Shown: piece by piece, positions 10,787 through 19,611 of the stretch | How positions within the stretch are numbered: position 1 is the first letter of the stretch | How the letters are laid out: each line of letters starts with the position of its first letter | Source: Flavobacterium fontis | Lineage (GTDB): Bacteria; Bacteroidota; Bacteroidia; Flavobacteriales; Flavobacteriaceae | Reading direction: 5' to 3' | Length of the DNA stretch: 64,000 nt | NCBI RefSeq assembly: GCF_900129405.1 | Contig: NZ_FQVQ01000001.1 | Location: 434,001-498,000 of the forward strand | Position numbers and translations under genes: made by a program | The notes under the pieces: model-generated | The model's database searches: none | What the model was told of the DNA's origin: nothing | The model's input: the letters and a program-made list of their open reading frames with translations, nothing else

Positions 10787-11461
10787 TTAGGTTAAAAGGA
10801 CATCGCGGAAGGTATCGCCAATGGGTAATACAAATTCACCGAGCGATACCGTTTTATTTTGAATCGACTTGATGTGTTGAGTACCTACAATGTAAGAACG
10901 ATGAATTCGTTTGAATTTTTGATTGGGAAGTTTATCCAAAATACTTTTCATGGCATGGCGGGCTACAATTTTTGTTCCGTTGGTGAGATGAATTTGTACA
11001 TAGTCATCCATACCTTCAATAAAAATAATGGTATCAAATTCAAGCCGGTACAATTTGTAATCCGCGCGTACCATTAAGTGCGTTTGGATTTGAAGATTTT
11101 TTCGGAATTCAAACTCATTACGTGCTTTTAACGCTGCTTGTTTAAAACGTTCTTCCGAAAAGGGTTTCAACAAATAGTCGGTGGCATTGACATTAAATCC
11201 ATCGACAGCATATTCACTAAAAGCGGTCGTGAAAATCACAATCACATCATGATCCAACAATTTGTAAAAATCAATGCCATTTTTATTGGGCATTTGGATG
11301 TCCAAGAAAAGCAAGTCTACAGGAAACTTACGAATGTGTTTAAGGGCTTCACTTTGAGCGGTAAAGGTTTTTTCAAGGGTAATAAAGTCAATTTGGGCGC
11401 AATAATGGGTAATCACTTGCAACGCCAAAGGTTCGTCATCAATAGCTATAGCGCGAATCAT
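10787..11461 (-). CDS. LytTR-family response regulator
   Basis: A 224-residue regulator. The receiver domain covers about 1-115, with acidic residues IDDEP at the N-terminus and phospho-acceptor Asp in LLFLDIQMPNKNG near residue 55. A LytTR DNA-binding domain follows at about 125-222 (YRLEFDTIIFIEGMDDYVQIH, then RIHRSYIV). It overlaps the sensor kinase gene by 4 bp and is translated after it, so the two form a LytS/LytR-type system. The target genes are unknown. Confidence 0.92.
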   Translation of the reverse strand: MIRAIAIDDEPLALQVITHYCAQIDFITLEKTFTAQSEALKHIRKFPVDLLFLDIQMPNKNGIDFYKLLDHDVIVIFTTAFSEYAVDGFNVNATDYLLKPFSEERFKQAALKARNEFEFRKNLQIQTHLMVRADYKLYRLEFDTIIFIEGMDDYVQIHLTNGTKIVARHAMKSILDKLPNQKFKRIHRSYIVGTQHIKSIQNKTVSLGEFVLPIGDTFRDVLLT

Positions 11462-12483
11462 TGTAAATCTATTATTAGGGTCACTTCATATACTTTTTCA
11501 TCTTCAAAAACCGATAGGTTATACCGTCCCGTATACATCAAATCCAATCGTTTTTGGGTGTTTTTTAGGCCCTCTGCTGTCCGCAGTTCTTCGTCTATAG
11601 AATGGGCAGCTTTGGGATTCTTAACCGACATCGTTAAGGTCTGGTTTTCAATTAAGATATGAATCAAAATATACGATTCTGCATCGGGATTGATGCCGTA
11701 TTTAAAGGCATTTTCAATGAAAGGAATCAATATAAGTGGTGCAATGGCTTTTCCAAAAGGTTCGCCTTCAATCTTAAAATCCAAAATAACGTTTTGGTCA
11801 AGCCGCAATTTTTGTAGCGCTATATAGTCCTTGATATAATTGAGTTCTTTGTCTAAAGTAACGTATTCCTGATTACTTTCGGTGACGACATACCGCATAA
11901 TCCCCGAAAGTTTCAAGACAGCATTGGGGGCTTCATCCGATTTTTGCAAGGTTAGCGCATATAAGCTGTTTAAGGTGTTGAATAAAAAATGCGGATTAAT
12001 TTGCGCTTTTAGATAGGAAACTTCGGCAATTTTTTTCTCAGTATTAATTTCGTTCAAACGGTTTGACATTTTAATAAGAAAGGCAAAGGCAATGACTAAC
12101 AAATAGGGAATTAAGATTTGGGCATCAAAAATCTCTGAAGGCTCTCTGGGTTCAGGGAAGTTTGGGAATCCCTTTGATCTAGGCATAAATCGTTGACTAC
12201 CGAAAATAGCATTGGTGATACCAATAATCCCGAGATAAGCAAAAACGACAAAGGCAAAAAAGAGTAGTTTTTTTTTGGCCAAAAACAGTTTGGGTATTAC
12301 AACGTAATAATAGGTGTAGAATAGGAGAAGGAGAAATACAAAACGGACAAATGATTTTTGAAACGGACTGATGTAAATCAATTGCCAACCTTCACCAAAA
12401 TCAGGAGATGATAAGATGGGAATGCTTAGAAAGGCAAAGATGCCTAGGATATTAATAAGGTAAAAGCGGGTTGAATTTTTCAT
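11458..12483 (-). CDS. LytS-type sensor histidine kinase
   Basis: A 341-residue kinase of the His_kinase (PF06580) class. Four hydrophobic segments fill about residues 8-135, with a proline-rich extracytoplasmic loop (PNFPEPREPSE). The phospho-acceptor box is AQINPHFLFNTLNSLYALT near 168, and the ATPase domain N-box is LILIPFIENAFKYGI near 250. No extracellular sensor domain is present, so the signal is probably sensed in the membrane. The gene heads the operon with the LytTR regulator. Confidence 0.92.
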   Translation of the reverse strand: MKNSTRFYLINILGIFAFLSIPILSSPDFGEGWQLIYISPFQKSFVRFVFLLLLFYTYYYVVIPKLFLAKKKLLFFAFVVFAYLGIIGITNAIFGSQRFMPRSKGFPNFPEPREPSEIFDAQILIPYLLVIAFAFLIKMSNRLNEINTEKKIAEVSYLKAQINPHFLFNTLNSLYALTLQKSDEAPNAVLKLSGIMRYVVTESNQEYVTLDKELNYIKDYIALQKLRLDQNVILDFKIEGEPFGKAIAPLILIPFIENAFKYGINPDAESYILIHILIENQTLTMSVKNPKAAHSIDEELRTAEGLKNTQKRLDLMYTGRYNLSVFEDEKVYEVTLIIDLQ

Positions 12484-12690: not shown

Positions 12691-13053
12691 ATGTCATCAC
12701 CTGAATATCAGCCTGGCTTACATGCCTTGTTAACCTTGCATGTAACGCGAACAGAATTTTTAATGAATGCAGCGCTATTCGTTCAATTTACAGACCTAAT
12801 GTTGGCTCAATTTGAATTGGAAAAAGTTGGTTTTTCACAACATGTTTTTGAGAACGCGAGTTATACAATAGCATATTGTTTGAAAGAATCTCATATTTGT
12901 ATTCATACTTGGCCAGAACATCAACAACTTACGCTGGATATCTATTTGTGTAATTACCAACAAGACAACAGCGAAAAGGTGAGAGCTTTGGCTCAAGCGT
13001 ATATTGACTTTTTTGAAGCAACTATTCTCAAACAATTTGAAATTCAACGCTAA
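12691..13053 (+). CDS. S-adenosylmethionine decarboxylase proenzyme (SpeH type)
   Basis: A 120-residue pyruvoyl-dependent enzyme that makes decarboxylated AdoMet, the aminopropyl donor. The self-cleavage motif is KESHICIHTWPE. Ser67 becomes the pyruvoyl group, His72 is at +5 and Cys87 at +20, the same spacing as the catalytic Ser-His-Cys set of the small bacterial enzymes. It starts a tight seven-gene operon (gaps of 0 to 11 bp, several overlaps) that also encodes a spermidine-synthase-like enzyme. No arginine or ornithine decarboxylase is in the window. The dedicated context suggests its product is used by the neighbouring membrane-bound aminopropyltransferase rather than for bulk spermidine. 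Confidence 0.88.
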   Translation: MSSPEYQPGLHALLTLHVTRTEFLMNAALFVQFTDLMLAQFELEKVGFSQHVFENASYTIAYCLKESHICIHTWPEHQQLTLDIYLCNYQQDNSEKVRALAQAYIDFFEATILKQFEIQR

Positions 13054-14286
13054 ATGACTTTATCTTGTTTTCATTGCGACACTGATACTACTGTGGATCT
13101 AACTTTTGAGCCTACTTTTTTTGTGTGTCCAAATTGCCAAAGTGTTTATGGAAAAGATTCCGATGCAGAATGGCGTGTAAAACATAAATTAAAGGGGGAA
13201 ATAACGCAAGAACTCCCACTTCAATTAGGACAAAAGGGAACAATTTATGGGGTAACATATACCATTACGGGAATCCTTGTCAAGTCTTCTTACAGTTATT
13301 ATCATTGGGTTGAATATGTTTTAGTTGATGATGCAGCCAATTTTAGATACCTTTCGGAATCGCAGGGGCATTGGATTTGGATGCAAAAAATACCAGAGTC
13401 TGACCAGGTAAATTTTGAAATTTATACTGCCGAATGTAATGGTGAAACTTTCGATTTATACGATAATTCAACGCCCAAACTATTAATGGCTCATGGATAT
13501 TTTGATTATGACATCCAAAAAAAATATTCTTTACGCGAATATATTAATCCACCGCATTTATTGTCTAAAGAGGAGTACAATAACTATGAAGTGCATTTCA
13601 AAGGTGAGCACATTAGTCGAAGAAACATAAAAAAAGCATTTAATTGTTCGGTGATGCCTCCAAAGATTGGTGTTGGAATCGTTCAACCTCCCGTGTTTTC
13701 ATTTCAAAAAGCAATTATTGTTTTTGCAAGTGTTGGGATACTAATGTTATTCACCTTATTTTTTCGTAATCTTGGTCGAAATGAAGCGCAAGTAGTTAGC
13801 ATCGATTTGCCCATGGATAAAGCGCAAGGGAGTACATTGAACACTCCTTCATTTACACTTGAAGGTATGGCTGCTTCCTTGAAAATTGATGTTTCAACCA
13901 ATGTAGATAATTCATGGGCAAGTTTGGAAGTTGCGCTCATTAACGAGATTACCCAAGACGAAGTGTATGCCAATAAAGATGTTGAATATTACCACGGTTA
14001 CGAAGGTGGAGAGAATTGGACAGAAGGAAGTACCAGTGAAAGTTTTACCATCTGTGGTGTAGGTCCGGGAAAATATCATCTCGCATTGACCCCTTCCAAG
14101 GAAAGCGATATGAGTAATGGCGATAAAATGTATGTCACAGCGCAGTGGGAGGTGCCTACCCTACGTAATTTTTTAATGACCTTACTTTTTATGGGAATTG
14201 CTCTTGTGGGAGGGTATTATTTAAATTTAATGTTTTTGGAGAAGCCACGATGGCAAGACAGTGACTACTCACCTTACGAAGAATAA
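13054..14286 (+). CDS. DUF4178-domain membrane protein with N-terminal zinc ribbon
   Basis: A 410-residue protein. It begins with a four-cysteine zinc ribbon (SCFHCDT at 4-10, VCPNCQS near 25-31), followed by a beta-rich DUF4178 domain at about 45-170 (GTIYGVTYTITGILVKSSYSYYHWVEYVLVDD type strands). A transmembrane helix follows near 212-232, then a second extracytoplasmic beta domain, and a C-terminal membrane helix near 375-395. DUF4178 proteins recur with DUF350 and spermidine-synthase-like genes; their biochemical role is unsettled. It starts right after the speH stop codon, so translation is probably coupled. Confidence 0.82.
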   Translation: MTLSCFHCDTDTTVDLTFEPTFFVCPNCQSVYGKDSDAEWRVKHKLKGEITQELPLQLGQKGTIYGVTYTITGILVKSSYSYYHWVEYVLVDDAANFRYLSESQGHWIWMQKIPESDQVNFEIYTAECNGETFDLYDNSTPKLLMAHGYFDYDIQKKYSLREYINPPHLLSKEEYNNYEVHFKGEHISRRNIKKAFNCSVMPPKIGVGIVQPPVFSFQKAIIVFASVGILMLFTLFFRNLGRNEAQVVSIDLPMDKAQGSTLNTPSFTLEGMAASLKIDVSTNVDNSWASLEVALINEITQDEVYANKDVEYYHGYEGGENWTEGSTSESFTICGVGPGKYHLALTPSKESDMSNGDKMYVTAQWEVPTLRNFLMTLLFMGIALVGGYYLNLMFLEKPRWQDSDYSPYEE

Positions 14287-14288
14287 AT

Positions 14289-14468
14289 ATGGAAAAATTG
14301 ACACATTTCATTCGTGAAAATAAATTAGCTTTGATACTTGGAGCTCTATTTTATGCTTATTTTTTATACAGTTCTGTAGCCGGTAATCGAATTTGTGATT
14401 GTGAATCCACACAAGAATACCGCTCCTCCAATGTAGTGACAACCCGCAATCATTTTTATCACAAATAA
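14289..14468 (+). CDS. Small single-pass membrane protein of the AdoMetDC/DUF350 operon
   Basis: A 59-residue protein, MEKLTHFIRENKLALILGAL at the start, with one membrane helix at about 13-33 and a short extracytoplasmic tail holding CDCES and a run of polar residues. It lies 2 bp after the DUF4178 gene and 11 bp before DUF350 and is in the same direction, so it is very likely a real operon member. I do not recognise the family. Confidence 0.65.
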   Translation: MEKLTHFIRENKLALILGALFYAYFLYSSVAGNRICDCESTQEYRSSNVVTTRNHFYHK

Positions 14469-14479
14469 AACAATACCTT

Positions 14480-14686
14480 ATGACACTTACTCCTATTTTA
14501 AATTCAATTGTTTTTTCAATTATTGGTATAGTTATCCTATTTATTGGATACTGGATATTGGAAAAAATGACGCCTGAAAATACGTGGAAAGAAATTGTTC
14601 ACAATAAAAATACGGCCTTGGCAATAGTTATGGGGGCATTAATTATTGGAATCTCTTTGATTGTTAGTGCCGCTATTCATGGGTAA
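14480..14686 (+). CDS. DUF350-family membrane protein
   Basis: A 68-residue protein with two hydrophobic helices (about 7-27 and 45-66) and the DUF350-like central segment TWKEIVHNKNTALAIVMGALIIGISLIV. Canonical DUF350 proteins are about 130 residues with two such units, so this is a half-length, single-unit version. Its last 8 bp overlap the start of the spermidine-synthase-like gene (ATGGGTAA), giving direct translational coupling. Confidence 0.78.
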   Translation: MTLTPILNSIVFSIIGIVILFIGYWILEKMTPENTWKEIVHNKNTALAIVMGALIIGISLIVSAAIHG

Positions 14687-16196
14687 AAAATTTCGATTCG
14701 AACTCTTATTACTTTTTGCAGTTTTTGTCATTGCTACTTGCGGATTAATCTATGAATTAGTCGCAGGGACATTGGCTAGTTACCTATTAGGGGATTCGGT
14801 AAAACAATTCTCTTTTATCATTGGTGTCTATTTGTTTTCAATGGGAGTGGGCTCGTATTTTGCCAAATTTATCCAAAAAAATTTACTGAAGACTTTTGTT
14901 GAGATTGAAATTTTAGTGGGTTTAGTTGGTGGATTGAGCTCAGTAGTATTGTATTTTTTATTTGAAAATGCCGCTTCTTTTCAGTTCGTGCTTTATTTCT
15001 TGGTTTTTGTAACGGGTTGTTTAGTTGGACTCGAAATCCCGCTTTTGATGAATATTTTAAAAGATCGAGTGGCCTTTCGTGATTTAGTATCTAATGTTTT
15101 TGCGTTTGATTACATAGGAGCGCTTTTAGCGTCTATATTATTTCCACTTTTTCTGATGCCCCATTTCGGGATTATGGGGACCTCGCTTTTTTTCGGAATG
15201 ATCAATGTTTCCATAGCTATTGTCTTGAGTTTTGTATTGCAAAATGAGGTAAAACGCCCCCGAATACTTCAATCGAAAGCCTTAATTTCTTTTACAATAT
15301 TGGCTGTTTCTTTCTTATTTTCCGACCGATTGCTCGGCCTTTCAGAGGAAAAGTTTTATGGAGAGAATATCATTTACACTCAAGCAACACCCTATCAGCG
15401 TATCGTTCTCACACATCAAAAAAGTGATTATCGATTGTACTTAAACAATAACCTTCAGTTCAGTTCACAAGATGAATACCGATACCATGAAGCCTTGGTA
15501 CACCCTGCGATGTCTATGGCACCCAAAATTGATCACGTATTAGTGCTTGGAGGTGGTGACGGGCTTGCTGTGCGCGAGGTGCTCAAGTATCGTGATGTAA
15601 AGTCCATAACGCTAGTCGATTTGGATGCAGGGATGACAAAATTGTTTCAAACGAATGCTATCCTGAAAGGGTTTAATAAAAACAGCTTAAACCATCCCAA
15701 AGTAACCGTATTGAATCAAGATGCCTACATTTGGTCAAAAGCCAATACGAAACGTTTTGATGTAGTAATTATTGATTTTCCCGACCCTTCCAATTATAGT
15801 TTGGGTAAATTATATGCTCTAAATTTTTATCAAACCCTTCAAAAGAATCTTACAGAAAATGCTGTCGTGGTAGTACAAACCACCTCTCCTTATTTTGCGC
15901 CAAAATCGTTTTGGTGTATTCAAAAAACGATACAACATGTTTTTCCACAGGTTGACGCCTACCATGCCTATGTCCCTTCTTTTGGGGAATGGGGCTTTTC
16001 AATTGCAATCAACGGATTTGGGACAACTTTCAACACGGTCTATCGAACCGTTCAAGGGCTTCGTTTTTATACCTATCAATTTGACACGATGAATCAGTTT
16101 CCGTCCGATATGATGCAAAAGGATGTCGAAATTAATCGATTGGATAACCAAATTTTAGTTCGCTATTTTGATGAAGAGTGGGGCCGAATTCAATAA
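14679..16196 (+). CDS. Membrane-fused spermidine-synthase-like aminopropyltransferase
   Basis: A 505-residue protein from the ATG at 14679. The first 200 or so residues are polytopic (about seven helices; LIYELVAGTLASYLLGDSV at the start is typical of membrane-anchored SpeE proteins). The rest is a spermidine-synthase fold: HEALVHPAM, AdoMet-binding VLVLGGGDGLAVREVLKY, LVDLDAGM, and VVIIDFPDPSNYSLGKLY. The last contains the catalytic Asp in a variant (FPDP) typical of membrane-bound forms. With AdoMet decarboxylase in the same operon it probably transfers an aminopropyl group to an unknown acceptor at the membrane. It overlaps DUF350 by 8 bp and the following oxidoreductase gene by 26 bp. Confidence 0.88.
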   Translation: MGKKFRFELLLLFAVFVIATCGLIYELVAGTLASYLLGDSVKQFSFIIGVYLFSMGVGSYFAKFIQKNLLKTFVEIEILVGLVGGLSSVVLYFLFENAASFQFVLYFLVFVTGCLVGLEIPLLMNILKDRVAFRDLVSNVFAFDYIGALLASILFPLFLMPHFGIMGTSLFFGMINVSIAIVLSFVLQNEVKRPRILQSKALISFTILAVSFLFSDRLLGLSEEKFYGENIIYTQATPYQRIVLTHQKSDYRLYLNNNLQFSSQDEYRYHEALVHPAMSMAPKIDHVLVLGGGDGLAVREVLKYRDVKSITLVDLDAGMTKLFQTNAILKGFNKNSLNHPKVTVLNQDAYIWSKANTKRFDVVIIDFPDPSNYSLGKLYALNFYQTLQKNLTENAVVVVQTTSPYFAPKSFWCIQKTIQHVFPQVDAYHAYVPSFGEWGFSIAINGFGTTFNTVYRTVQGLRFYTYQFDTMNQFPSDMMQKDVEINRLDNQILVRYFDEEWGRIQ

Positions 16197-17775
16197 ATCC
16201 AGACGGAATTTCTTTAAAAGTATCGCAACAGCATTAGTTGTTTTGCCGATGTTGCAGGCGTGCAAACAAAAGGCAAAACAATGGGTGGTTAAACTTACCG
16301 GAACAAGGCATGTGCTCGGACATCGTTTGTGGAGCAAAGATTTTCCTGCCCCCACAGCACACTTGTCGGTACCGATTGTTATTGTAGGTGGAGGTGTTAC
16401 AGGACTCAGTGCTGCACGGCAATTGCACCGTAAAGGGCACGATGATTTTTTACTCCTAGAAATGGAAGATCATGTGGGGGGAAATGCTTCAAATGGTGAA
16501 AATACCTATACAAAATATCCCCTCGGGGCGCACTATCTACCGTTACCTAATCGGGAAGACCACGAATTGATTGCGTTTTTAAAAGAGTCAAAAATTTTAA
16601 AAGAAGAGGACCAAACTGGGCTATTGAATTTTGATGAAACGCAAATTGTTTTTGCGCCCAACGAACGCATTTATTACCGGAATGCCTGGCACGAAGGATT
16701 GATTCCTAAATCGGAGTTGAGCGCTAATGATGAAGCACAATTTGCTGCTTTTTTTCAACAAATGGAGTACTACCGCTCTCAAAAAACAGCGGGGAAATAT
16801 TGGTTTGATATTCCGCTAAAAAATGTCATTTGGGTAAATGAAAATCGCGCACTCGATCAGATGACAATGCGGGAGTGGATGGAGAAACAATGGAGTTCTT
16901 CTAAATTATTTGCCTATGTAGATTACTGTTGTCGTGATGATTTTGGGTTGGGAATTGACTATGTATCTGCCTATGCAGGCATTCACTATTTTGCTGCTCG
17001 GAAAAAAAATGCCCAACCTGAATATGAAGATGGGGTACTCACATGGCCAGAGGGAAATGCTCGTTTAGTACGTCATTTTCATAGTTATGTTAAAGATAAA
17101 ACGAAAGTCAATCACATAGTGTATGAGGTGAAAATCAAAGTGGGAGGAGTTGAATTATGGGTTTTTGATGCTCAGAAGAATCAATCTTTGATCATCCATG
17201 CCCAAAAAGTCATTATGACAACTCCACAGTTTGTGAATGCCTATTTGTTTGATTCGCACAAAAAATATGCCCGCTCTTTTCATTACGCGCCTTGGTTATT
17301 AGCCACATTAGTCGTCTCTGAATTAAAGGATAATGAAACTTATCCGCTGTGTTGGGATAATGTTTTGTATGAATCCGATGGTCTAGGCTATATTTACGAT
17401 CAACATCAGCATTTGAATCAAGTTTCAACTCCCAAAGTCATTACCTATTATCACAGTTTTTCTTCCGATAACTGCAAAAGAGACCGTAGATTACTTTATC
17501 AAAAACCGGCAGAGTATTGGCAACAAAAAGTCTTTAACGAGCTCAAGAAAGCGCATCCGACAATTGAACAAGTAACAGAATCTATGACCATTCATCGGTT
17601 GGGACACGGAATGATAAGTCCGAAGCCCGGGTTTATCACAGGGCAAGCCCGACGTAATGCGGCACAAACCATGGAAAATCGTATTTATTTTGCGCACACT
17701 GATTTGTCGGGTATTTCTATTTTTGAAGAGGCTTTTCATCAAGGTATTGATGTTGTAAATCAACTTTTGTCATGA
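16171..17775 (+). CDS. FAD-dependent amine-oxidase-like protein with export signal
   Basis: A 534-residue flavoprotein. The N-terminus NKSRRNFFKSIATALVVLPMLQAC combines a twin-arginine-like SRRNFF motif with a lipobox-like LQAC, so it is probably exported folded and lipid-anchored. The FAD site is VIVGGGVTGLSAARQLHRKG near 68-87, then EMEDHVGGNA and GAHYLP; this is an NAD(P)-binding Rossmann/amine-oxidase fold. The C-terminus (RIYFAHTDLSG... EEAFHQGI) is the usual second FAD-contact region. It follows the aminopropyltransferase with overlap, so an aminated lipid, peptide or polyamine may be the substrate; that is inference. Confidence 0.82.
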   Translation: MKSGAEFNKSRRNFFKSIATALVVLPMLQACKQKAKQWVVKLTGTRHVLGHRLWSKDFPAPTAHLSVPIVIVGGGVTGLSAARQLHRKGHDDFLLLEMEDHVGGNASNGENTYTKYPLGAHYLPLPNREDHELIAFLKESKILKEEDQTGLLNFDETQIVFAPNERIYYRNAWHEGLIPKSELSANDEAQFAAFFQQMEYYRSQKTAGKYWFDIPLKNVIWVNENRALDQMTMREWMEKQWSSSKLFAYVDYCCRDDFGLGIDYVSAYAGIHYFAARKKNAQPEYEDGVLTWPEGNARLVRHFHSYVKDKTKVNHIVYEVKIKVGGVELWVFDAQKNQSLIIHAQKVIMTTPQFVNAYLFDSHKKYARSFHYAPWLLATLVVSELKDNETYPLCWDNVLYESDGLGYIYDQHQHLNQVSTPKVITYYHSFSSDNCKRDRRLLYQKPAEYWQQKVFNELKKAHPTIEQVTESMTIHRLGHGMISPKPGFITGQARRNAAQTMENRIYFAHTDLSGISIFEEAFHQGIDVVNQLLS

Positions 17776-18815
17776 GTACACCTTGGATCTATAATCAAAA
17801 AAAGGATACATTGTTTATTCTTTTACCTCCGTTCCTTATTGTAGGGGTAGTCTTGTTATGTCAACCTTTTTTTAGCCATTTAGAGGATAAATATGAGTTT
17901 GTGAACTGGTTGGTATTCATTGTTTTTATTGATGTTGCACATGTTTATGCCACCTTGTTCAAAACGTATTGGGTCTCTGGAGAAGTTGGTAAACATCGAC
18001 TCCGCTATTGGGGTATACCCTTAGGTTGTTTTGTCTTGGGCGCTGTATTGTATGCTTTGGGGAGCAAAACTTTTTGGTCGGTTCTAGCTTATTTGGCGGT
18101 TTTTCATTTTATAAGACAACAATATGGATTTATGCGGCTGTATAGTAGAACAGAGCATACGAGTTTGCTTAAACGCCGTTGGGATACCGTGATGATTTAT
18201 GCTGTAACAGGATTACCAATGCTCTATTGGTTTATCACCCCCGACCGAAATTATACTTGGTTTACTCCAGATGATTTTTGGCGACTTTCTTTACCAAACG
18301 CAAAACCGTATTGGTATGTTTTGTATATACTTTTTTGGCTAGTCCACATTACAATCACGTTTAAAGAATATCAAAAATTTAACCAAATCAATTGGCCAAA
18401 GCAAATGATCATAGTGGGAACAGCCATTTCGTGGTTTACTGGGATTGTTTACTTAAATAGCGACTGGGCCTTTACTGCGATTAATGTTGTGTCGCATGGA
18501 GTTCCTTATATGGCCTTGGTTTACTTTAATGAAATCAAGAGCAAGCCCAACGAATTGATTATCGGACAGATACCAAAACAAGCTATTGGCGTTATCACTT
18601 TTGTAATTATTGTATGTGGTTTCGCTTTTTGCGAGGAATGGCTTTGGGAAGTTATGGTATGGAAAGAACATTTTACATTTTCAGATTTAGCGACTTTAAA
18701 CTGGACTGCCCTATGGGTACCTTTGTTAACAGTACCTCAATTCACACATTACATTTTGGACGGAATCATCTGGAAACAAAAAAAGCGAGCAGAAAATTCG
18801 GCTCGCTCAACATAA
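17772..18815 (+). CDS. Polytopic membrane protein, last gene of the aminopropyltransferase operon
   Basis: A 347-residue protein with eight or more hydrophobic helices. Conserved-looking polar residues sit within the helices (VFIDVAHVYATLFKTYW, AVFHFIRQQYGFMRLYSR, VVSHGVPYMALVYFNE, VPQFTHYILDGIIWK); the repeated histidines could bind a metal or cofactor. It overlaps the FAD oxidoreductase by 4 bp (ATGA). I do not recognise the family; membrane desaturase- or oxidase-like chemistry would fit the histidine pattern but is unproven. Confidence 0.75.
   Translation: MSTPWIYNQKKDTLFILLPPFLIVGVVLLCQPFFSHLEDKYEFVNWLVFIVFIDVAHVYATLFKTYWVSGEVGKHRLRYWGIPLGCFVLGAVLYALGSKTFWSVLAYLAVFHFIRQQYGFMRLYSRTEHTSLLKRRWDTVMIYAVTGLPMLYWFITPDRNYTWFTPDDFWRLSLPNAKPYWYVLYILFWLVHITITFKEYQKFNQINWPKQMIIVGTAISWFTGIVYLNSDWAFTAINVVSHGVPYMALVYFNEIKSKPNELIIGQIPKQAIGVITFVIIVCGFAFCEEWLWEVMVWKEHFTFSDLATLNWTALWVPLLTVPQFTHYILDGIIWKQKKRAENSARST
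18778..18807 (-). terminator. Terminator of the DUF3050 gene
   Basis: AGCGAGC at 18784-18790 pairs with GCTCGCT at 18801-18807. On the minus strand the hairpin is followed by a run of seven T residues (A-run at 18778-18784 on the plus strand). It is encoded inside the last codons of the convergent membrane-protein gene. Confidence 0.65.
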
Positions 18816-18828
18816 CTAAGTTGTATTT

Positions 18829-19611
18829 TTACACCAATTCCTCGCGAGTGACAACCATCTCTTCAATCGCATCCCATAAACCAAGGCGTTTTTCCAAAGC
18901 TTGTTGGGAAACTTCGAGCACTTCATTCCATTTGGTTGCGCTGTCTCCACAAAGTTCTGTAATCATTTGCATCGCCATCGGACCGTGCTCATCGCCATCC
19001 AATTCGATATGACGTTCAAAGTAGTAAATTAGCTTTGACAAATCGGTTTGTGGGAAATTTTGCTGGAAGTTCTTTAAAATCTCAGTGAACATCGTCGGAA
19101 TCAAATCTTCTCTCCCAAAAGTAAAAGCAGCTGCAATTTTATGCGCCTTCCCTTCTTCAATGACCCGAAAGGTGAAGTCTAAAAATGCGCGTACCTTCGG
19201 ATGCACTTCCGCATGTTTGATGGAAACAAATATGTTTTGCGTTTTTTGAATATCCTCCAAAAAGCGTTGAACCGCCAGCGTATTGGCTCCGCATTGGTTC
19301 ATGGCGTCCAAGTACATCTCAAAATGACTTTGGCGTTTTCCATCCATCGCAAGGTCTGTTTCTTCCGCCACAACAATTTCATTAATCAAATAGCGTACTT
19401 CAGGATTTCCAACCGGTAACCATGGCGTCGTGGTACAGGTGAGTTGCTGTTGTAACGCTTTTAACAACGACATAAAATCCCAAACCGCATAGACATGGTG
19501 TTCTAGGAAACAGTGTAAATCGTCAAGGGTTCGAATTTTATCGTAAAGCGGATGCTGTAGCAATTGGTCTTTCAACGGTTGAAGAGCGCCGTTTATGTCT
19601 GAAATTTGCAT
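18829..19611 (-). CDS. DUF3050 protein, heme-oxygenase-like (HDO) fold
   Basis: A 260-residue all-alpha protein with the DUF3050 features. The N-terminal segment is HPLYDKIRTLDDLHCFLEHHVYAVWDFM, and acidic/histidine helices VVAEETDL... SHFEMYLDAM and YYFERHIELDGDEHG look like the diiron ligands of heme-oxygenase-like oxidases. The family is common in Bacteroidota; the reaction is unknown. It is convergent to the aminopropyltransferase operon, with its terminator inside that operon's last gene. Confidence 0.83.
   Translation of the reverse strand: MQISDINGALQPLKDQLLQHPLYDKIRTLDDLHCFLEHHVYAVWDFMSLLKALQQQLTCTTTPWLPVGNPEVRYLINEIVVAEETDLAMDGKRQSHFEMYLDAMNQCGANTLAVQRFLEDIQKTQNIFVSIKHAEVHPKVRAFLDFTFRVIEEGKAHKIAAAFTFGREDLIPTMFTEILKNFQQNFPQTDLSKLIYYFERHIELDGDEHGPMAMQMITELCGDSATKWNEVLEVSQQALEKRLGLWDAIEEMVVTREELV

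What the first reader, a model, noticed from the sequence alone, without database searches (positions are those of the whole stretch)
12691..18815. Seven-gene operon around a membrane-bound aminopropyltransferase
Seen: AdoMet decarboxylase, DUF4178, a 59-residue membrane protein, half-size DUF350, membrane-fused spermidine-synthase-like enzyme, exported FAD oxidase and a His-rich membrane protein, with gaps of at most 11 bp and several overlaps. Known: AdoMetDC, DUF350, DUF4178 and spermidine-synthase-like genes recur together in bacteria, some in envelope-stress contexts. Inference: the system modifies a lipid, peptide or polyamine at the membrane with aminopropyl groups and oxidises the product. 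The oxidase and terminal membrane protein are additions worth noting.
Basis: partly seen in the sequence, partly recalled or inferred. Interest (0 to 1): 0.66.

Follow-up and report, generated by a model that had tools for sequence, protein, structure and literature searches.

The report
Membrane aminopropylation operon with oxidase module
A seven-gene bacterial operon appears to add aminopropyl groups to an unknown amine at the inner membrane, and its last two genes, an exported flavoenzyme and an undescribed membrane protein, are inherited together with it, which suggests a second, unstudied step outside the cytoplasm.

Summary
Confirmed: seven co-directional genes at 12691-18815, spacings -26 to +11 bp. 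The core (AdoMet decarboxylase, DUF4178, DUF350, membrane-fused aminopropyltransferase) is a published operon type. What is new is the 3' pair.

Gene 6: amine-oxidase-fold flavoprotein with Tat motif and lipobox. In 296 phylum genomes it occurs in 12 of 22 with a long transferase match and 0 of 274 others. In a 27-row transferase tree all 17 gene-6 rows (Bacteroidota, Pseudomonadota, Gemmatimonadota) lie in one supported set of 19.

Gene 7: membrane protein without Pfam or NCBIfam family; four His and three Asp invariant over 24 sequences. In 395 order genomes genes 6 and 7 occur in the same 35, adjacent in each. One, G316, has the pair beside a PspA-type transferase.

Against: two same-genus genomes lack the pair; the transferase's acceptor loop resembles that of a solved thermospermine synthase, so a polyamine substrate is not excluded.

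Most likely: aminopropylation of an amine at the membrane, then oxidation on the periplasmic side. Substrate and chemistry unproven. New variant of a known kind.

The parts
12691..13053 (+). Gene 1: class 1b-type S-adenosylmethionine decarboxylase (SpeD), 120 aa; S67, H72 and C87 correspond to T. maritima S63, H68, C83
   Evidence: PF02675 65 bits; ESH/IHTWPE/YLC aligned to solved AdoMetDCs 2iii and 1tlu; positions counted; the three residues are named in PMC10407285 (passage); only PF02675 match in the genome. Below the cut-off of TIGR03330 (54 of 75.65 bits)
13054..14286 (+). Gene 2: N-terminal CxxC pairs (zinc-ribbon-like), DUF4178 domain, then two hydrophobic segments (residues 219-237, 377-395) around a stretch of about 140 residues
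   Evidence: PF13785 53 bits; hydropathy scan; CxxC read from the sequence
14289..14468 (+). Gene 3: 59-aa protein, one hydrophobic segment, conserved G-N-x-x-C-(D/N)-C and C-terminal H-K
   Evidence: No family; homologs in 10 of 22 loci, all 10 with the motif
14480..14686 (+). Gene 4: half-length DUF350, two hydrophobic segments, 68 aa
   Evidence: PF03994 57 bits over profile positions 3-66 of 133; hydropathy; 69 aa (210 bp) also in Novosphingobium
14679..16196 (+). Gene 5: membrane-fused aminopropyltransferase, 7 hydrophobic segments (residues 10-214) plus a spermidine-synthase-like domain; GGGDG at 291-295, acceptor-side loop D366-F-P-D369-P-S-N-Y-S-L-G-K-L-Y
   Evidence: NF002956 642 bits; PF01564; alignments to five solved chains; motifs in 27 rows; only match in the genome
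16171..17775 (+). Gene 6: amine-oxidase-fold FAD enzyme, 534 aa, predicted Tat-exported lipoprotein
   Evidence: PF01593, PF13450; model pLDDT 78.5 matches monoamine oxidase, putrescine oxidase and spermidine dehydrogenase folds, E about 1e-21 to 1e-19; beside gene 5 in all 12 phylum genomes that have it
16198..16263 (+). Tat motif S10-R11-R12 (SRRNFFK) and lipobox-like L28-Q29-A30-C31 of gene 6
   Evidence: N-termini: RR in 12 of 14 rows, RK in 2; cysteine at the aligned place in 13 of 14 (not L045); a Burkholderia frame and G316 also have RR and a cysteine; TatC in the genome
17772..18815 (+). Gene 7: membrane protein, about ten helices in the model, with invariant D54, H57, H112, Q116, D138, H242, H326, D330; undescribed family
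   Evidence: No Pfam family and no NCBIfam match better than E 0.07; alignment A1; invariants shared with 9 remote homologs and the G316 copy; model pLDDT 70.5, the four His in four helices; the hydropathy scan finds only 4 segments

Best explanation
The operon is a two-stage envelope-modification system. Stage 1 (the known core): SpeD makes decarboxylated AdoMet in the cytosol; the membrane-embedded aminopropyltransferase uses it to aminopropylate an amine presented at or in the inner membrane (a lipid head group or a membrane-delivered amine). DUF350, the DUF4178 protein and the small protein are membrane partners or sensors. Stage 2 (the pair described here): the product reaches the periplasmic face, where the Tat-exported, lipid-anchored flavoenzyme (gene 6) oxidises the new C-N bond, and gene 7, a polytopic protein with a conserved His/Asp set, is either a metal-dependent enzyme acting on the same membrane product or the membrane electron acceptor of gene 6. 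Shown: gene content, order, co-inheritance, conserved catalytic and donor-site motifs, a predicted export signal. Inferred: substrate, side of the membrane where the product appears, chemistry of genes 6 and 7.
For: SpeD catalytic residues kept. GGG(D/E)G donor motif in 27 of 27 transferases. One PF02675 match and one transferase match in the genome, while the host has a homospermidine/deoxyhypusine-synthase-family gene (PF01916) about 0.6 kb from a PF02784 decarboxylase-family gene, so the operon is probably not its only route to a triamine (inference). Gene 6 in 12 of 22 genomes with a long transferase match and 0 of 274 others, always adjacent (Fisher p about 9e-16 with genomes taken as independent); 7 of 7 plasmid records with gene 6 have the transferase beside it. 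Tat motif and cysteine from Bacteroidota to Burkholderia, Novosphingobium and Gemmatirosa. Gene 6 fold matches amine-oxidising enzymes. Genes 6 and 7 in the same 35 of 395 genomes, gap -4 to +83 bp. In G316 the pair sits beside a PspA-type transferase in the order 5-7-6.
Against: No substrate or product is known. The acceptor-side loop D(F/L)PDP....LY, kept in 27 of 27, differs from B. subtilis spermidine synthase (DSTEPVGPA) but resembles solved polyamine enzymes: DLADP...KLY in thermospermine synthase 6bq2, DLTDP...LLY in 1uir and 3anx, DLTDP...QLY in 7xif. So the loop does not speak against a polyamine acceptor. Amine-oxidase-fold proteins include non-amine enzymes; sequence matches of gene 6 to solved chains cover mainly the FAD-binding region, and there is no lysine in the eight residues where I expect the usual active-site lysine (15 of 15 rows; position recalled and inferred, not superposed). 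G257 and G289 keep genes 1-5 without 6-7; 7 further loci of the 22 have neither gene. G002, G212 and G291 have gene 6 without gene 7. Searches scored only the first 3-7 candidates per genome, so absences are soft.
Confidence: 0.42

Rival explanations
1. A polyamine system after all: the transferase makes an unusual polyamine (for example by aminopropylating homospermidine), its membrane half exports it, and gene 6 is a periplasmic polyamine oxidase or dehydrogenase that trims or degrades it.
For: Spermine_synth domain with intact donor motif; acceptor-side loop of the form seen in thermospermine synthase 6bq2 and the polyamine aminopropyltransferases 1uir and 7xif; gene 6 fold matches putrescine oxidase and spermidine dehydrogenase; the host probably makes homospermidine (inference); MFS_SpdSyn model matches over its cut-off (50.8 of 40 bits).
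Against: A published test of such fusion proteins found no complementation of a spermidine synthase mutant (Li et al. 2019, recalled from its abstract, paper not held); that test concerned putrescine and does not exclude longer amines. Half-length DUF350 and other small membrane partners are not needed for a soluble product (inference).
Confidence: 0.3
2. Gene 6 is not an amine oxidase but a flavin-dependent dehydrogenase, desaturase or isomerase acting on the acyl part of a lipid; gene 7 is a membrane oxygenase-like enzyme; aminopropylation is only the head-group step of a new lipid.
For: The best profile match among solved chains is 2b9w, named 'putative aminooxidase', recalled to be a fatty-acid isomerase; no lysine where one is expected; gene 7 His/Asp set in helices.
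Against: Fold matches are headed by amine-oxidising enzymes; FMS1 polyamine oxidase is the best single-sequence match.
Confidence: 0.15
3. Gene 7 is the electron acceptor of gene 6: a b-type cytochrome or quinone-reducing subunit with two bis-histidine haems, passing electrons from amine oxidation to the respiratory chain. (This concerns gene 7 only and can hold together with either of the first two readings.)
For: Four invariant histidines in four different helices; genes 6 and 7 coupled in 35 of 35.
Against: Invariant D54, D138 and D330 near the histidines are unusual for haem ligation (recalled); nine remote relatives have no match to gene 5 or gene 6 in the fetched flanks of up to about 5 kb; gene 6 occurs without gene 7 in G002, G212 and G291.
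Confidence: 0.15

Closest known systems
Membrane-fused spermidine-synthase-like / AdoMetDC / DUF350 clusters (Li et al. 2019 Biochem J 476:2579, recalled; cited in PMC11237479)
   Same: SpeD, DUF350 and a fusion of an N-terminal membrane domain with a SpdSyn-like domain; inferred non-polyamine aminopropylation
   Different: As far as I recall its abstract, no Tat flavoprotein or gene 7 is described; the paper could not be read
Second CesT/Tir-PspA operon group of Ravi et al. 2024 (PMC11237479, passages read)
   Same: DUF350, DUF4178 and a spermine-synthase domain fused to a 7TM domain
   Different: No PspA or CesT/Tir match among the seven window genes; DUF350 is half-length; genes 6 and 7 are added. 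That paper mentions a 'polyamine oxidase' for another group, with an ATP-grasp ligase; whether that protein is related to gene 6 was not tested. G316 holds a CesT/Tir-PspA cluster and a 5-7-6 set side by side
Novosphingobium cluster SPFH-DUF4178-DUF4178-small-DUF350-transferase-FAD oxidoreductase-speD (NZ_CP063446.1)
   Same: DUF4178, small protein, 69-aa DUF350, transferase, FAD enzyme in the same order
   Different: SPFH gene and a second DUF4178 gene added, speD at the 3' end, no gene 7
Flavin amine oxidases (monoamine oxidase, putrescine oxidase, spermidine dehydrogenase SpdH)
   Same: Fold and FAD-binding segment
   Different: 12-17 % identity in the listed fold matches; predicted Tat lipoprotein; own C-terminal motif DLSG.S.FEEA, degenerate in G316
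Brp/Blh beta-carotene dioxygenase (PF15461)
   Same: Four helices each with a conserved His (layout recalled); a forced global alignment puts four His motifs in register
   Different: Profile comparison not significant (probability 0.6-4.6 %), near reversed controls (0.2-0.8 %)

Membership tests
Membrane-fused aminopropyltransferase operon (Li 2019 / Ravi 2024 type) | SpdSyn-like domain fused to an N-terminal multi-TM domain | tested here: met
   NF002956 642 bits over cut-off 472; 7 hydrophobic segments then PF01564
Membrane-fused aminopropyltransferase operon (Li 2019 / Ravi 2024 type) | Linked AdoMetDC, DUF350 and DUF4178 | tested here: met
Membrane-fused aminopropyltransferase operon (Li 2019 / Ravi 2024 type) | Acceptor other than putrescine | not testable with these tools
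   The acceptor-side loop differs from one spermidine synthase and resembles a thermospermine synthase and other polyamine enzymes
CesT/Tir-PspA operon group | PspA and CesT/Tir genes in the operon | tested here: not met
   No PspA or CesT match among the seven genes; the rest of the genome was not searched for them
AdoMet decarboxylase (class 1b) | Pyruvoyl-forming Ser, with His at +5 and Cys at +20 | tested here: met
   S67, H72, C87; TIGR03330 equivalog cut-off not reached
Flavin amine oxidase superfamily | Amine-oxidase fold with N-terminal FAD-binding motif | tested here: met
   PF01593 57 bits over cut-off 19.8; fold match E about 1e-21
Polyamine oxidase | Catalytic lysine near flavin N5 and polyamine-binding residues | tested here: inconclusive
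   No lysine in the expected segment in 15 of 15 rows, but the place was inferred from recall and one weak alignment, not from superposed coordinates
Brp/Blh (PF15461) | Significant profile similarity | tested here: inconclusive
   Probability 0.6-4.6 %; gene 7 gives no Pfam match
Bis-His haem membrane cytochrome | Haem binding | not testable with these tools
   No call can show haem

The most novel reading that the evidence does not exclude
Genes 6 and 7 are the later steps of an undescribed pathway that first aminopropylates an inner-membrane lipid and then oxidises the added group on the periplasmic face, giving a new class of modified envelope lipids; gene 7 founds a family of membrane metalloenzymes (invariant D-x-x-H, H-x-x-x-Q, H-x-x-x-Y and H-Y-x-x-D) whose other branch occurs away from this operon elsewhere in the phylum.
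Probability: 0.18. Interest if true: 0.8.

Novelty: new variant of a known kind. Interest (0 to 1): 0.55.

Why it matters
What the membrane-fused aminopropyltransferases act on is an open question. A predicted exported flavoenzyme that is inherited with one clade of them narrows it: the product should be reachable from the periplasm and carry an oxidisable group. Genes 6 and 7 can be deleted singly, so an intermediate should accumulate and become visible by mass spectrometry. Gene 7 adds an unnamed membrane protein family with a metal-site-like residue set.

Tried and rejected
Gene 7 as a known family: no Pfam match, NCBIfam only chance hits; of its 9 fetched remote relatives 5 were scanned and none has a family over cut-off. 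No sequence match to solved structures but one chance hit at E 1.6. Foldseek best E 0.42; VIA-align lists rhodopsin-like helical bundles at Z up to 6.6, background for such bundles. The model is only moderate (pLDDT 70.5).

Gene 7 as Brp/Blh: 27 of 30 fetched PF15461 loci were aligned (one dropped as over-long, two without a clean ORF); profile comparison not significant, with reversed alignments as controls. Left as a resemblance.

Altered acceptor loop as evidence against a polyamine acceptor: first argued from 1iy9 alone; dropped after five solved chains were aligned. For that reason I lowered the best explanation (0.50 to 0.42) and the novel case (0.20 to 0.18), raised the polyamine rival (0.22 to 0.30) and trimmed the second rival (0.18 to 0.15).

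'Flotillin-like' 696-aa ORF in G316: judged by eye, no Pfam match at E 0.001, dropped.

Gene 7 or its remote relative on plasmids: no match. Promoter and terminator scan uninformative (22 promoter-like sites against 22.0 expected, 2 terminator-like against 5.3). nspC: no match in the genome at E 0.001.

Paper searches: 3 papers; 290, 25 listed; 8; 51, 15 listed; DUF4178, 1 paper; DUF350, 35, 25 listed; 22, 10 listed. In the listed titles and abstract beginnings I saw none that describes genes 6 or 7. Opened by passages only: PMC11237479, PMC11107197, PMC10407285, PMC11999265.
Full report
WHAT IS THERE. Seven ORFs on the + strand at 12691-18815, with spacings 0, +2, +11, -8, -26 and -4 bp. Domains: AdoMet_dc, DUF4178, none, DUF350 (half), Spermine_synth with PRK03612-type membrane fusion, Amino_oxidase/NAD_binding_8, none. 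Downstream lies a convergent DUF3050 gene (18829-19611), upstream a divergent LytTR/histidine-kinase pair. A DUF3050 relative lies about 1-3.5 kb from the operon in 5 of the 22 compared loci, all of the window's genus; the upstream pair has no match at E 1e-15 in any of them. Neither is counted as part of the operon.

CONSERVATION OF THE ORDER. 22 related loci were compared: 20 of the 21 other phylum genomes with a long transferase match (G088 not fetched) and two Elizabethkingia loci. tblastn with the seven window proteins gives all seven in order in 8; all but gene 3 in 2; gene 6 without gene 7 in 3 (G002, G212, G291); genes 1-5 only in 2 (G257, G289, both of the window's genus); neither gene 6 nor 7 in the other 7. 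Of 5 further loci fetched because they hold genes 6 and 7, 4 have all seven (gene 6 in two pieces in G562) and the fifth is G316.

GENE 6 GOES WITH THE TRANSFERASE. In a sample of 296 genomes of the phylum, 22 have a long match to gene 5 (E at most 1.7e-93, covering at least residues 10-445). A gene-6 profile matches 12 of 296 at E at most 1e-20, all among those 22 and all next to gene 5 (Fisher p about 9e-16, which treats related genomes as independent). The profile was made from operon members and only 4 candidates per genome were scored, so unlinked distant relatives could be missed. Outside the phylum, tblastn of gene 6 against plasmid records gives 7 records (3 Novosphingobium, 3 Burkholderia, 1 Gemmatirosa), each with the transferase beside it. 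The annotated Novosphingobium record reads SPFH, DUF4178, DUF4178, small protein, DUF350, transferase, FAD oxidoreductase, speD.

TREE. In a maximum-likelihood tree of 27 transferases (window, L033-L052, L002, L003, L139-L142), the 17 rows with gene 6 fall in one set of 19 supported at 97/97; the other two are G257 and G289, and the 8 remaining rows without gene 6 lie outside. The simplest reading is one gain of gene 6 and one loss in part of the window's genus, with a midpoint root. Gene 7 needs 4 changes on the tree, at least 2 on supported branches. The transferases of G316 are not in this tree and add at least one change.

GENE 6 ITSELF. RR stands in 12 of 14 N-termini and RK in 2 (L037, L038); a cysteine stands at the lipobox-like place in 13 of 14, not in L045. 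The genome has TatC. The model (pLDDT 78.5) matches monoamine oxidases, putrescine oxidase and spermidine dehydrogenase at 12-17 % identity. Motifs such as GAHY and DLSG.S.FEEA (the latter degenerate in G316) are not assigned to a substrate. By sequence, similarity to solved chains is mostly the FAD-binding region. No lysine lies in the eight residues from the conserved P-W, where I expect the flavin-N5 lysine of amine oxidases (15 of 15); the placing rests on recall and a weak alignment. 'Amine oxidase' is the leading reading, not a result.

GENE 7. In 395 genomes of the order it matches 35; the gene-6 profile matches 35; they are the same 35, on the same contig and strand, with gaps of -4 to +83 bp, gene 6 first in 34 (for G562 only the nearer piece of gene 6 was used). 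Whether gene 5 is also adjacent was looked at in 12 of the 35 and was so in all 12. In the phylum sample gene 7 has 9 close matches, all beside gene 6, and 11 remote ones (E 4.8e-16 to 3.8e-11) in other families. Nine of the 11 were fetched; they show no match to genes 1-6 at E 1e-3 in flanks of up to about 5 kb, and four of them (L100, L103, L105, L108) share neighbours with each other (by eye). L102 starts at a contig end and may be cut. Profile comparison shows the remote proteins to be homologs of gene 7 (probability 99.5 %). Over 24 sequences the invariant residues are W46, D54, H57, T61, T65, A109, H112, Q116, Y118, G119, D138, Y143, P149, F234, H242, Y246, A248, H326, Y327, D330, I333, W334. 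The four histidines lie in four separate predicted helices. This looks like a metal site in the membrane; distances could not be measured because no coordinates are given.

G316. A genome of another family in the order (83 % complete) carries side by side a cluster with CesT_Tir_1, PspA, AdoMet_dc, an ion channel, DUF4178, full-length DUF350 and a transferase, and a set transferase-gene 7-gene 6, with a second PspA gene beyond it. Both its transferases are nearest to L052 and L050 (46-54 %), loci that also hold PspA, and further from the window's clade (32-37 %). So the 6-7 pair occurs with two lineages of the transferase, which supports a functional link and ties it to the envelope-stress network of PMC11237479.

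THE TRANSFERASE. The donor motif GGG(D/E)G is kept in 27 of 27 rows, and D(F/L)PDP....(L/V/I).(K/R)LY in 27 of 27. Compared with five solved chains, 1iy9 (spermidine synthase) reads DSTEPVGPA...LF, but 1uir and 3anx DLTDPVGE...LLY, 6bq2 (thermospermine synthase) DLADPIEG...KLY and 7xif DLTDPYSS...QLY. The loop is thus of the kind found in several polyamine enzymes, with P in place of T or A before the second D. It neither proves nor excludes a polyamine acceptor. The genome has one SpeD, one transferase match, no nspC match, and a PF01916 gene near a PF02784 gene on contig 19, which suggests homospermidine as its own triamine (inference).

LITERATURE. Ravi et al. [quoted passage not shown] they mention a polyamine oxidase in another operon group. 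Li et al. 2019 is cited there and recalled; it is not held.

VERDICT. A real, conserved operon; a new variant of a known kind with a well-supported two-gene module whose chemistry is open.

Noticed in passing
window 18829-19611 (-): DUF3050 protein (355 bits) with a weaker Haem_oxygenas_2 match, convergent with the operon; a relative lies about 1-3.5 kb from the operon in 5 of 22 compared loci, two of them without genes 6-7.
   Followed up: partly
window 10787-12483 (-): Divergent histidine kinase and LytTR response regulator just upstream; no match near the operon in the 22 compared loci at E 1e-15.
   Followed up: partly
L143 5921-6619 and 16404-17126: Two PspA genes (PF04012, 106 and 154 bits) in G316 around two aminopropyltransferase sets.
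   Followed up: partly
L144 5013-6598: Gene 6 of G562 is split over two frames while tblastn finds the other six genes; frameshift or sequencing error.
   Followed up: no
G000:C26:34524-35297: The window's genome has a Brp/Blh (PF15461) gene, 123 bits; 39 of 296 phylum genomes exceed the family cut-off.
   Followed up: no
L100-L108: Other branch of the gene 7 family, 355-441 aa (one possibly cut at a contig end), in other families of the phylum; the five scanned have no Pfam or NCBIfam family.
   Followed up: partly
window 14289-14468: The 59-aa protein keeps a C-D-C (or C-N-C) motif after its hydrophobic segment and ends in H-K in the 10 homologs listed.
   Followed up: no
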